Source: Allolobophora icterica (taxonomy: Eukaryota > Annelida > Clitellata > Crassiclitellata > Lumbricidae). From it: a DNA stretch of 64,000 nt. The translations under genes and the position numbers were made by a program. The notes under the pieces were generated by a model. The model had not been told where the DNA came from. It did no database searches and saw only the letters and a program-made list of their open reading frames with translations. Where the stretch lies: assembly GCA_963556255.1 (NCBI GenBank), contig OY744606.1, positions 73,818,736-73,882,735 on the forward strand, read 5' to 3'. How positions within the stretch are numbered: position 1 is the first letter of the stretch; the number at the start of each line of letters is the position of its first letter. Positions 3,914-64,000 of this stretch are shown here, piece by piece.

Positions 3914-4063
3914 ATGCCATTTATGTGGAGCGGTTTCGCAAGTGTTTCCGAGATGATCCGGTCATACCGTCAGCACTTCAAGTACCTTCTCGTGGTTCCT
4001 TTCCTCGTGGCTCTAGCTGTGGCTTCCTACAAGATCGGACATTCGTCAAATGCACTGACAAGA
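3914..4063 (+). CDS. Gene 1 exon 1 (signal-anchor)
   Basis: Fifty codons, phase 0 end after ...NALTR, followed by a GTTGGT donor. MPFMWSGF start shared with genes 2, 5, 6 and 7. Confidence 0.8.
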
Positions 4064-7000
4064 GTTGGTATTTGTAATAATCAGGCTTACATCGTCTCTT
4101 TTTCGATTATCATTGACCAGTACTATGCCTTTTCTTCTCTTTTTTTCATTACTTATGTTTCTTTTCCTTATTAGTTAAGAATATTTAAGTCTTTCCAGAA
4201 ACTGAGCAGTCTCTCATAGTCTTAATGAGAATACTTACATGCCATCGTAATACTGTGAACTTGAGTTGGGTTTCCCTACCTAGCGGGATTGCCATCCTTT
4301 TGGGGACGCCCTTTGCCATTGATGACAAATTTTGCTGCAGATCACTGTATGTTTTTTGATTGTTTGATTTAGTTTGTGTTGATAATCTGAATAGAATCTT
4401 TACATAGTTACTTCAGTGCCCAGTTTATGTAATTATACATTTCGGTTTCATGTTCTTATTGTCTTGTCTGTAAATCTTTCTATTGTACTTGTTACCGATT
4501 GTCATCGATTGCAATAAAGAAGCTATTGATTGATTGATTAATTGATTGATTGATTGATATATAAGTGTATTTTAGTACCCCACCTTCAATAGCATGTTAA
4601 GTTAACCCCACCTTCATCGGTTAGCATGATAGGTTAGCAGTTGAGTAAACGTGTCCAAAATATTAAGGGGAATGGGAGTCTGGACAATCAGCGAATCTCA
4701 GAGGCTCAGAGCTGGACTTGACTGTCATCAATGCTATTCATCCGATCCTCGTTAAACGGAGCTTCCAGTCAAATCAAATCAAATCAATTCAATTCAAATA
4801 GTTCTTTATTGAAACCATATATAATGTACAACAATAGTAATGTGCTAAAGAAGATGCCTGTACAAAATGGCCCCAAGGGTAGGCCCTGAAAAGAAACATT
4901 CCGTTGGTAGGGACACCTACTTACTACGTTTATTTAAATGGAAGGTAATGGCTCGCTTGAGCGACAGCAGCTACTGTCAGTTTAATGTTGTGTGTATATA
5001 GTTGTAGACTTATTCAGATATCTGAAATAAGGAGTGACGTGGAGCAGAAGGTTGAACAGGGTAGGGAAAGCTCTACCCCAGGAGGAGATCAATATGCAGA
5101 CAATAAGCGGAGTATATTAGAACGTAAAGTAGTATTAACAAATAAAGAAGACTTAACTAATCTTAACTAAGCATGAATAGTACAATGACTAAGAATTAGT
5201 GGTTTCAATAAGGTGCTGGTGTAACTTCCTTTTAAATCTCTGGAGGGTCCCTGTCTGCTGGAGCGAGGGAGGGAGTGCATTCCAAACTGAGGCCCAGGCT
5301 TTTAAATTTGGAAAACCTACGCGAATTTGAATGAGCATATAAAGCACGGTATTTATAGGAGTTCCTGGTGAAGTGGTTGTGGATATCAGAGCCAGGGTGG
5401 ATTAGGCTCATAAATTTTGATGGTAGAAGGTTACGTGTATGTTTGTACATGAAGACGCCCGTGTGAAGTCGCTTTATTTAGTAAATTTTTATTAGTTTAT
5501 GGCTAGAGAAGATTGGGCCTGTGTGAGAAACCCAATAGAAATATAGGTTTGCAATTTGCAACTTGATTCCTGTTACCTTTCTTAAATATCGGAGTTACTT
5601 TGGCGGCTTTTAGTGCCTGGGGAACAATACCAGAGTTGAGGGACCAGTTAATTACCTCTGCTAAAGGCGAGGCAATATAAGGTAAACTAGTGGCAGCTAT
5701 GCGCGGGTCGATATCATCGGCTCCCCTACTATGGGTCGTGCGTATTGAAGAACTTAGTAGCAGAATTTCTTCGGGAGATGTTGGGATTAAGCAAAGGAGC
5801 ACGGTATGGGAGGATTCGGATAATCGGTGAATAAGGTTTGGTTGGTTGGAACTTGGTTGGCTAGAGTCTGAGCAATATTTGAGAAGTAGTTATCTGGGGA
5901 CAACCGGGTCACGTTCCACCCAATAATTGAAGAGGGGAGGCACTCCAGTCCTCCAAGTGCGTCAGTTAAATGGGTGCGTTTCGTTACATGTAAATTTGTT
6001 TCATGTTGAAGATATTGAAGATATAAATAAATCTTTGTTTTCAATCTCTTCACTATGAATTTCTCATTTCCTGATAATATTTCAGTTCTTTGTCTCTGTT
6101 TTTGAAGAAGTGTGTCTGTATTAAAGCATAATCTTTCAATAGTTTAAAAAATTCGCCTCTCGATTTTTTTGGGAGAATGCCTAGTGCCTACCCTCCTCAA
6201 TTATTGGGAGGAACGTGACCCGGCTGCCGCCAGAGTCTACGCCTATATATAGGTTGGCCCCACCTTTATCGGTTAGCATGATAGGTTAGCCTCACCTTCT
6301 TCGGTTAGCATGATAGGTTAGCGTAATATAATTCAACCTAATTCAACAGTGTCGATTAAAAGAATAGAAAGATATTTACTAATAGTTGCTGAATCTGAAT
6401 TAAATCCAAATGAATTGAATTGAGCAAAAATCTCACTTAAACAAAGCAATAATCAGAGAACCTTATGTTGTTATCTGCTGAATTGCTGGTAACGGTGTCC
6501 TTTATTGTGCAATAACTGATTCCGTCGGTTTACCCTTAAACGCCAAACACAGCTGGATGGCAATGACTTTTATCTATCAGTATTAATTGGTGTCAATAAA
6601 GCTGGAAATTAAATTTCAGTAATACAACACGCTGAGTAACATTGAATTCTTTCCACTATTTTTATTCTTTGAATTTCTAACTCTGCATTTTCGTGACTTA
6701 ATAAATAATTGAAAACACGACAAGACTGTATAATTAGGGGCCACCCACATATTACGTACGCAATTAGGGGGGGTGGGGGTCGGATTTTGGCGATTTTGCG
6801 TACGGGTGCGAACGGGGGGGGGGGAGGGGGACAAAATATGTACGTACGCAGAATAAATTTCTAATTATGACGTCCACATTAGCCTATTTATAACTCTGTA
6901 TTGAATACTATAGTCGTCCGATGGCATTTTATTACATTATATAAAAGCCATGTGCAGTTATTCTGTGCTGTGAACGAAACACCTATAATTTGTCTATATT

Positions 7001-61647: not shown

Positions 61648-61797
61648 ATGCCATTTATGTGGAGCGGTTTCGCTAGCGTTTCCGATATGCTTCGGTCATA
61701 CCGTCACCACTTCAAGTACCTTCTCGTGGTTCCTTTCCTCGTGGCTCTTGCTGTGGCTTCCTACAAGATCGGATATTCGTCAAATGCACTGACAAGA
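61648..61797 (+). CDS. Gene 7 exon 1 (signal-anchor)
   Basis: Fifty codons ending NALTR; GTAAGA donor. Confidence 0.84.
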
Positions 61798-64000
61798 GTA
61801 AGAATTTTTAAAACAATCGGACTTACATAAAACCTCAATAAAACATTCTCATTGCGAAATCCACAGGTATAATAATAATAATCTTCGTTTACTATTTTCA
61901 AACTGACAGTTACGCAGTATGATTACAAATCAGTATGAACGGATGATCACAAGTTATTACAGGAGTCGAATTTTAACTGTATACGGCAGCCTTGCAAGGC
62001 GCCCTTCACGTCCTACATCTCATTTTCAAAACGCGCCATCTCGCGAATGATAGGCCGAGAGGACCTTGGCTGATTAACTAAATTAGTTAACCGTCTCAGT
62101 AGGTTTGTCATTGTCAACACAATCATTTTTAGGAATAATGAATGTTGAGATGCGGATAACTTTCCAGTTAAAATCTAAATAGTGCTAGATTTAGGCTTGA
62201 AGAGGCCTAAGCTATATGAAGCTTGTAAGACCATTGTTACAAAATTACACCAGAAGGTCTAAAAAACTTGAAAACATATATGCCTTTTTATTATTTAATA
62301 GCAATGCATTTAAAGTGAAAAAATCAAATTATTTTCAAGTGAATGCATTTGCTCAGGCAAGCTGGAATTTGCTATACAAGCCGCTTCAAAAGGTCAAACA
62401 CAACACACACACACACACACACACACACACACACACACACACACACACACACACACACACACACACACGCACACACACACACACACACTTTTTTTTATAC
62501 AGAACACGAAAAATTGAAATAGTCCCACCCCAAACTTCTGAAATTTTTTTCAGGCCCCGGCAGATTGTAAGGCCCTAAGCTGTAAATCCTGCATTGAATC
62601 TAAATCATTAGTGCAAGCCCAGTCACGCAATATTACTATCTTTATTGATGTCTATAGATATTCACCAAAACTGGGATTGGAAAACTGTCACTCATAATTA
62701 TGGTAATCTCTATTTGCAAATAGAATGAAATGGAAGATGCGGTGTTGCACAGGGAGAGGCGTGATGTCACCGAGGTTCCTACAGAATACGTAAACAACAT
62801 GAAGCAAGGTGAGAGTGTGAAAGTAGGTAGCTTATAATGCATAATGTATGTATTTATTCATGCATGTATACATGATTGCATATATGTATGTATTCATGTT
62901 TGTAGGTAGGTAGGTAAGTATGTAAGTAGGTAAGTAGTTACACTTTATTTAAACTAACAGAAGTGGTGATGTAATCTCATGTAATGTGTGCATGCATACA
63001 TTTATGTTTGCATGCATTATGAATGCATGCAGGTAGGAAAGTATGTAGATAAATATGTCGGTAGGCAGATAGGAAGGTATTTTAGTAGGAAATTATGGAT
63101 CCGTTGACTAAAAATGTCAGTATTTGAGTGATTATTTACAGTTTATGCGACCTGAGACGCCCAACCTCGATTAAGTTTAACATCCTAATTGGCAGAACAG
63201 CCTGCAGACTTTAACCCTGAAATCCTCTTTGGCTGATTATCCCAGAGCATTATATAACGAAAGAAGTTTGGCAAATCAGAAGCGAAAGCTGTCATTCACT
63301 GTTTCCATCAGGAGATATCGGAAGACCAGATCCAGACGGGCTTTGAAGTCAGCAGCAACTTTACGCTCATCAACAATCGCGAGTCTATCATGGTTTTACC
63401 TTTGCAAATGCCTAGGTTTGATAAAATGTGAACAGGCAACGATCTTTTTGGTCACCGTGAAAAACACTCTAAACCGATGGGATGTTGCTTTCAAACTGTT
63501 TGATATCTTTTAATAAATAGCAGATTGTTATCGGTACAAAAAGAACTTTCTTTACTGAAAGCATCAATTTTTAACAGGTAGCGTTGTTTACACACGTTGG
63601 GGTCGCACAGAATGTCCAGAAGGAGTTGACACCGTGTACAGCGGAGTAACTGGAGGTTCCTGGTATGCTAATCACGGAGGAGGAGCCAATCCTCTTTGCC
63701 TTCCAATGGACCCACTTTGGGGAACCTACAACGAAGCCGTGGAGAAAGGATCCAAACTCTATGGAGCCGAATACGAGTCTCCATCGGGGTTTGACTTCAA
63801 AAACGTTGGCGGTCGTACAGCCCAGGATCACAATATTCCATGTGTCGTCTGCCACAGCAGAACAAAGAGCTCCATTCTTATGATTCCAGCCAGGAATCGT
63901 TGTTATGGCGACTGGAGCATGGAATACAGCGGATACCTGATGGCAGGCCATTCAGGGCACAACGGACGTTCACAGTTCATATGCATGGATGGAAGTCCTG
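61648..64000 (+). CDS. Gene 7 (3' truncated by the window)
   Basis: Exons 61648-61797, 62724-62808 and 63578 to the window edge give the first 219 or so residues. MPFMWSGFASVSDML start, anchor LLVVPFLVALAVAS, convertase site LHRERR|D after residue 63, linker ending NNMKQG, then SVVYTRWGRTEC, GGGANPLCLP, PCVVCHSRTK, up to FICMDGSP. The first six of the ten cysteines are inside the window. Splice sites GTAAGA, GCAAATAG, GTGAGA and TTTTTAACAG are all consensus. No defect is visible; it is probably a live copy and the youngest duplicate of gene 6. Confidence 0.85.
61870..62060 (-). mobile_element. LINE 3' tail in intron 1 of gene 7
   Basis: Counterpart of 2889-3085 with a short (TAA)n start. Confidence 0.6.
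62402..62489. repeat. (CA)n microsatellite
   Basis: Nearly pure AC dinucleotides in intron 1 of gene 7. Confidence 0.97.
62724..62808 (+). CDS. Gene 7 exon 2 (furin-site linker)
   Basis: 85 nt; NEMEDAVLHRERRDVTEVPT and ends NNMKQG, phase 1. Confidence 0.84.
62860..63080. repeat. GTAT/GTAG tetranucleotide tract
   Basis: Same position after exon 2 as in genes 1-3. Confidence 0.7.
63578..64000 (+). CDS. Gene 7 exon 3 (partial)
   Basis: Acceptor TTTTTAACAG; open to the window edge; differs from gene 6 exon 3 by only a few residues. Confidence 0.88.

What the first reader, a model, noticed from the sequence alone, without database searches (positions are those of the whole stretch)
3914..64000. 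Tandem array of at least seven three-exon genes for furin-site, membrane-anchored C4-like proteins
Seven same-strand copies share exon number, exon phase (0 then 1), an anchor exon, a linker exon and a domain exon. Exons 1 and 2 are too short to be found by simple ORF calling, so automated annotation may report only isolated exon 3 pieces. The expansion looks like an effector or matrix-protein family under turnover.
Basis: partly seen in the sequence, partly recalled or inferred. Interest (0 to 1): 0.9.

Follow-up and report, generated by a model that had tools for sequence, protein, structure and literature searches.

The report
Tandem array of convertase-released collagen-IV-like genes
An animal genome carries seven neighbouring three-exon genes for small membrane-delivered proteins that look built to be cut free by a furin-like enzyme to release a collagen-IV-like domain, and three of the seven appear to have been assembled by joining the front half of one gene type to the domain of another.

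Summary
The window carries seven + strand genes, each with an anchor exon, a furin-site exon and a C4-like domain exon in that order; all 14 introns are GT-AG, phase 0 then 1. The seventh gene runs off the window end. At least three broken domain-exon relics lie between copies.

Outside support: five relatives from unnamed sources encode the whole joined protein (61-65% identity, 99-100% coverage) in one frame on 1.0-1.5 kb contigs, shorter than any complete gene in the window.

The domain is a spongin-type NC1 domain: ten cysteines, no HSQ motif, best PDB fold matches to collagen IV NC1, though weak in TM-score. Gly-X-Y repeats are absent, so these are not short-chain collagens proper.

By domain exon the copies fall into {1-3} and {4-7}; by exons 1-2, copies 5-7 join 1-3 and exclude 4. 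AU tests reject each half's grouping on the other half (p 0.022 and 0.002). Copies 5-7 look like chimeras joined within intron 2. Exon 3 is under purifying selection, which does not fit a diversifying effector family. The likely surface or matrix role is inferred.

The parts
3914..4063 (+). copy 1 exon 1 (anchor)
8624..8705 (+). copy 1 exon 2 (linker, RERR|DV)
9455..10008 (+). copy 1 exon 3 (C4-like domain, lineage A)
16675..16824 (+). copy 2 exon 1
18340..18421 (+). copy 2 exon 2 (RDRR|DV)
21636..22189 (+). copy 2 exon 3 (lineage A)
26286..26423 (+). copy 3 exon 1 (12 nt shorter)
27951..28032 (+). copy 3 exon 2 (RERR|DV)
29211..29764 (+). copy 3 exon 3 (lineage A)
39069..39218 (+). copy 4 exon 1 (diverged; start codon least certain)
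41944..42031 (+). copy 4 exon 2 (RAKR|DV), not found by blastn, placed by reading
42390..42955 (+). copy 4 exon 3 (lineage B)
48377..48526 (+). copy 5 exon 1
49303..49387 (+). copy 5 exon 2 (RDRR|DV)
50713..51293 (+). copy 5 exon 3 (lineage B), acceptor moved 27 nt upstream
55234..55383 (+). copy 6 exon 1
57072..57162 (+). copy 6 exon 2 (RERR|GV)
57918..58471 (+). copy 6 exon 3 (lineage B)
61648..61797 (+). copy 7 exon 1
62724..62808 (+). copy 7 exon 2 (RERR|DV)
63578..64000 (+). copy 7 exon 3, cut by the window end (lineage B)
3079..3913 (+). copy 1 upstream (promoter-side) block shared with copy 2 and, over shorter parts, with copies 3, 5, 6 and 7
23002..23231 (+). relic of a domain exon, closest to copy 4, frameshifted
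46491..46951 (+). relic of a domain exon (lineage B-like) with stops
53082..53235 (+). weak relic of the 3' part of a domain exon, with stop

Best explanation
A tandem, birth-and-death array of animal genes for small convertase-released proteins with a spongin-type NC1 (collagen-IV-related, C4-like) domain. Exons 1-2 act as a delivery cassette: a hydrophobic N-terminal stretch inserts the chain into the ER membrane with its C-terminus in the lumen, and a furin-type site (RX[KR]R) in a flexible linker lets a proprotein convertase cut the anchor off. Exon 3 is the cargo: a compact ten-cysteine domain of about 184 residues that is released to the cell surface, mucus or extracellular matrix. The phase-1 intron 2 separates cassette from cargo, and the array has used it: copies 5-7 carry the lineage-A cassette joined to a lineage-B cargo exon. 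Shown by sequence: the gene models, the site, the domain family and the mosaic. Inferred: topology, cleavage, and the surface or matrix role.
For: Gene models. Five relatives (P0001-P0005) carry the full joined protein uninterrupted on contigs of 1,022-1,450 bases; their alignments run through both junctions. RX[KR]R in 7 of 7 copies and in 7 of 29 relatives examined (P0001-P0005, P0007, P0008). Hydrophobic peak (19-residue Kyte-Doolittle 1.81-1.99) in 7 of 7 copies with net charge +1 or +2 before it. AF2 of relative P0001: helix 8-60 through the hydrophobic stretch, lowest confidence (pLDDT under 50) at 57-66 where the site (58-61) lies and in parts of 74-91, confident domain. Domain: pLDDT 91.8; Foldseek ranks 1-35 are all collagen IV NC1; ten cysteines in 6 of 6 complete domains and no HSQ, as PMC5395295 describes for spongin NC1 (passages read). 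Mosaic: synonymous difference between 1-3 and 5-7 is 0.25 in exons 1-2 but 0.60 in exon 3 (0 of 2000 bootstraps reverse this); AU tests reject {4,5,6,7} on the 5' half (p 0.022) and {1,2,3,5,6,7,P0001} on exon 3 (p 0.002). Non-coding sequence, 650 nt upstream of the ATG: mean identity 65% between 1-3 and 5-7, 62% within 1-3, 78% within 5-7, 41-43% for copy 4 with either group.
Confidence: 0.6

Rival explanations
1. The N-terminal stretch is a cleaved signal peptide, so the products are ordinary secreted proproteins and the RX[KR]R site only removes a short propeptide; nothing is ever membrane-anchored.
For: The hydrophobic core is about 16 residues and is followed by small residues (AVAS in most copies); relatives P0007 and P0008 look, by eye, like signal peptide plus RMKR. 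No signal-peptide predictor was available.
Against: A 23-residue charged stretch precedes the core in the window copies; the YK[IM]G[HY]SS stretch after the core is kept in 7 of 7 copies and similar in P0001-P0005; octopus relatives have hydrophobic peaks of 1.78-2.59 over 19 residues.
Confidence: 0.3
2. The shared 5' halves reflect repeated gene conversion (homogenisation of promoters and exons 1-2) rather than one recombination that created chimeras.
For: 5' synonymous difference between groups (0.249) is about that within groups (0.259 and 0.201).
Against: Copy 4, inside the array, escaped it; divergence levels also fit a single exchange at about the time the A copies radiated. Not decisive.
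Confidence: 0.27
3. A diversifying effector or immune-recognition family.
For: Tandem copies, turnover and surface delivery fit such families; exon 2 has three pairs with dN/dS above 1.
Against: Exon 3 dN/dS 0.10-0.33 in all 21 pairs; exon 2 is too short (27-30 codons) to read; relatives are of the short-chain-collagen C4-like kind. No site-by-site test was run.
Confidence: 0.1
4. Not functional genes: relics, or exons used in other combinations (cross-copy or other upstream exons).
For: Copy 1 has a 4.6 kb intron 1 and an unusual donor, gttggt; relics exist in the array.
Against: Six of six complete models are open from ATG to stop with GT-AG introns; purifying selection; full-length relatives in one frame.
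Confidence: 0.06

Closest known systems
[quoted passage not shown]
   Same: The domain: mostly 45-55% identity to named annelid, mollusc, octocoral, lancelet and brachiopod proteins in the list, ten cysteines, no HSQ motif, similarity to collagen IV NC1.
   Different: No run of Gly-X-Y repeats in any of seven copies; a hydrophobic N-terminus and furin-type site in place of a collagenous stretch.
Octopus and argonaut proteins annotated 'short-chain collagen C4-like' of about 255 aa (P0021, P0024, P0026 and others)
   Same: Same overall layout: N-terminal hydrophobic stretch, short linker with a basic pair, one C4-like domain; many Octopus sinensis entries list a contig of the same length (55,351,117), so probably one chromosome.
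   Different: About 40-45% identity; KK/KR/RK rather than RX[KR]R in 13 of 13 examined; gene structure not seen here.
MACIT transmembrane collagens (XIII, XXIII, XXV, C. elegans COL-99) and C. elegans cuticle collagens such as SQT-3
   Same: May work alike: type II insertion, then furin/PCSK cleavage releasing the C-terminal part (PMC4678570 and PMC10538796, passages read).
   Different: Those are triple-helical collagens; no homology claimed and no collagen repeat here.
Collagen IV NC1 domain
   Same: Best fold matches.
   Different: No HSQ motifs; about 184 rather than 230 residues; PMC5395295 says spongin NC1 lacks the domain-swapping region (passage read).

Membership tests
Spongin short-chain collagens | C-terminal NC1 domain with ten cysteines (seven shared with collagen IV plus three own) and no HSQ motif | tested here: met
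   Ten cysteines in 6 of 6 complete domains (copy 7 is cut), HSQ absent in 7 of 7; which cysteines match was not checked one by one; signature from PMC5395295
Spongin short-chain collagens | Short Gly-X-Y collagenous stretch before the NC1 domain | tested here: not met
   No run of four or more GXY in 7 of 7 copies; present in some relatives (Pfam Collagen in 10 of 60 members of A2)
Spongin short-chain collagens | Fold related to collagen IV NC1 | tested here: met
MACIT-type transmembrane collagens | Triple-helical collagenous ectodomain | tested here: not met
   no Pfam hit on the seven exon 3 translations
MACIT-type transmembrane collagens | Furin-type site between membrane stretch and ectodomain | tested here: met
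   RX[KR]R in 7 of 7; use of the site not testable here
MACIT-type transmembrane collagens | Type II membrane topology | tested here: inconclusive
   Hydropathy and charge fit, but the stretch is short
Tandemly duplicated gene family | Same-strand homologous genes with the same exon structure side by side | tested here: met

The most novel reading that the evidence does not exclude
The locus is a working exon-shuffling device: one promoter-plus-exons-1-2 delivery cassette that is re-paired, through recombination in the phase-1 intron 2, with diverging cargo domain exons within a tandem array, so that new convertase-released matrix proteins come ready-made with the same expression and delivery.
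Probability: 0.3. Interest if true: 0.55.

Novelty: new variant of a known kind. Interest (0 to 1): 0.42.

Why it matters
The domain family is known across invertebrates, but six paper searches (listings only) and the passages read in seven papers showed no description of a collagen-free, anchor-plus-furin form or of its exon structure; absence from this open-access library is not proof, and the founding 2006 family paper was not held. The mosaic gives a compact, testable case of exon shuffling by recombination in an intron of a tandem array. It also warns annotators: exons 1 and 2 are short, one exon 2 is missed by blastn, and two exon 1s lie inside longer ORFs in the wrong frame.

Tried and rejected
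Viral or phage origin: no relative confirmed in viral contigs (two pattern matches failed tblastn), none in phage records, no viral fold match at E <= 0.001. RNA features: no Rfam match at gathering score. Sequence-only routes to the fold: no Pfam domain in the exon 3 translations, no PDB match by single sequence, and by profile only three weak unrelated hits. A search with residues 1-78 of copy 1 alone found only P0001 (1 protein at E <= 1 among 40 candidates), so other uses of the cassette were neither found nor excluded. Unrooted topology tests on the seven copies alone could not separate the hypotheses (in 5 of 5 alignments the constrained tree had p-AU 0.35-0.50), because three groups have one unrooted shape; relatives were added as outgroups. 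Chromosome context beyond the window and the species could not be reached. Left out before counts: gapped codons and the few columns at the exon 2/3 junction in the dN/dS and bootstrap work; copy 7's exon 3 is partial in all comparisons; domain-only hits were not used in the 5' tree because they lack exons 1-2. In three exon 2 pairs dS was infinite, so their dN/dS of 0 is not meaningful.
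Full report
OBSERVATION. The window (64 kb, no N) holds seven genes of one kind, all on the + strand. Copy 1's exons searched against the window return seven exon 1s, six exon 2s and seven exon 3s by blastn; copy 4's exon 2 was seen only as a chance-level tblastn match (RAKRDVT, E 8.8) and was confirmed by reading. Joined models are open in all seven: 261, 261, 257, 267, 271 and 264 aa, and 219 aa for copy 7, which runs off the window. All 14 introns are GT-AG, phases 0 and 1. Intron 1 is 776 to 4560 nt; intron 2 is 358 (copy 4, from the coordinates) to 3214 nt. Two acceptors needed care: copy 5's exon 3 starts at 50713, giving nine extra in-frame residues, and copy 4's at 42390.

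EXTERNAL SUPPORT FOR THE MODEL. A search with the joined copy 6 gave 395 proteins at E <= 0.001 among 773 candidates, 120 listed. P0001 to P0005 cover 99-100% of the joined model at 61-65% identity, on contigs of 1,022-1,450 bases. The six complete genes of the window span 2.9-6.1 kb, so such contigs are best read as spliced transcripts (inference; sources unnamed). P0001 has 15 extra residues after exon 2 (the segment ESINRSTPRLYEHNI); reading through copy 2's exon 2 donor gives GES, then RSTPHLDEH a few residues on, in frame, so that relative seems to use a donor further downstream.

THE PRODUCT. In 7 of 7 copies the 19-residue hydropathy peak is 1.81-1.99, starting at residue 24 or 25, with net charge +1 or +2 in the 15 residues before it. 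RX[KR]R follows 13-17 residues after that stretch in 7 of 7, and is present in 7 of 29 relatives examined (P0001-P0005, P0007, P0008); 13 of 13 octopus/argonaut proteins examined have only basic pairs. The full-length AF2 model of P0001 (mean pLDDT 78.8, pTM 0.63) shows a helix 8-60, a low-confidence stretch around the site (under 50 at 57-66) and linker, and a mostly confident domain. The domain alone, with 60 sequences aligned, gives pLDDT 91.8 and pTM 0.87.

MOSAIC. Exon by exon divergence and its bootstrap show two deep domain lineages, A = copies 1-3 and B = 4-7. Mean synonymous difference in exon 3 is 0.60 between 1-3 and 5-7, 0.48 between 4 and 5-7, 0.71 between 4 and 1-3, 0.27 within 1-3 and 0.18 within 5-7. 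In exons 1-2 the same five values are 0.25, 0.63, 0.59, 0.26 and 0.20. So the 5' half of 5-7 is as close to that of 1-3 as the 1-3 copies are to each other, while copy 4 is far from all. The excess of exon 3 over the 5' half is 0.24-0.47 (95% of 2000 bootstraps; none at or below zero). With P0001-P0005 as outgroups the 5' protein tree rejects a {4,5,6,7} clade (p-AU 0.022) and the exon 3 tree rejects {1,2,3,5,6,7,P0001} without 4 (p-AU 0.002). P0002 and P0004 fall next to lineage B in the domain tree (98%) and with copy 4 in the 5' tree (60-80%, weak); P0001 falls with the A side in both. So copies 5-7 look like the derived chimeras. Non-coding sequence agrees: in the 650 nt upstream of the ATG, mean identity is 65% between 1-3 and 5-7 (range 54-74, nine pairs), 62% within 1-3 (56-73, three pairs), 78% within 5-7, and 41-43% for copy 4 against either group. 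At the 3' end, blastn similarity between 1-3 and 5-6 stops before the stop codon, while within 1-3 and between 5 and 6 it runs 40-154 nt past it; copy 4 is an exception inside lineage B, since its match to 5 and 6 also ends at the stop codon. A test on the seven copies alone could not decide.

SELECTION AND TURNOVER. Exon 3 dN/dS is 0.10-0.33 in all 21 pairs; exon 1 is 0.19-0.66; exon 2 is too short to read, with values up to 1.67. Three relics of domain exons with stops or frame breaks lie at 23002-23231, 46491-46951 and 53082-53235. Averaged over exon 3 this is birth and death under purifying selection; no site-by-site test for diversification was run.

FUNCTION. The best analogy for the mechanism is type II insertion followed by convertase release, as for MACIT collagens (PMC4678570, passages read) and C. 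elegans cuticle collagens, where BLI-4 promotes secretion (PMC10538796, passages read). Expression notes for domain relatives are scattered: gill in mussel (PMC4581086), predicted secreted genes raised in an anemone's pedal disc (PMC6626399), mainly neuroglandular cells in Nematostella (PMC12549020), and gill in oyster, where the authors link it to shell biomineralisation (PMC12040131); passages only in each. They suggest secreted surface or matrix material, but none concerns this anchored form. The family paper by Aouacheria and colleagues (2006) was not held and is known here through citations.

ORGANISM. Not identified. PMC5395295 places the family in invertebrates other than ecdysozoans and in basal chordates, and the closest named full-length relatives listed are octopus, so a lophotrochozoan is a guess. 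The own-genome search did not complete.

VERDICT. Observation confirmed; the effector reading not supported; a probably convertase-released, collagen-free variant of a known domain family, with a supported mosaic origin for copies 5-7.

Noticed in passing
18422-18480 and P0001: Read-through of copy 2's exon 2 donor resembles the 15 extra residues of relative P0001, suggesting an alternative or shifted 5' splice site that lengthens the linker.
   Followed up: partly
14181-14735 and 51443-51993: An 86% identical dispersed repeat of about 550 bases, upstream of copy 2 and downstream of copy 5; probably a mobile element, not identified.
   Followed up: no
11492-12169 (-) and 57378-57755 (+): ORFs that look like decayed LINE reverse-transcriptase ends (recalled resemblance only; no Pfam match).
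   Followed up: no
48283-48642 and 39011-39355: ORFs over 100 aa run through exon 1 of copies 5 and 4 in the wrong frame, an annotation trap.
   Followed up: partly
2350-2517 and 23766-23932: Clean minisatellites with 28-base and 32-base units, 96% and 95% matches.
   Followed up: no
12677-13103 and 35003-35300: Long TCA and GA microsatellites of about 430 and 300 bases.
   Followed up: no
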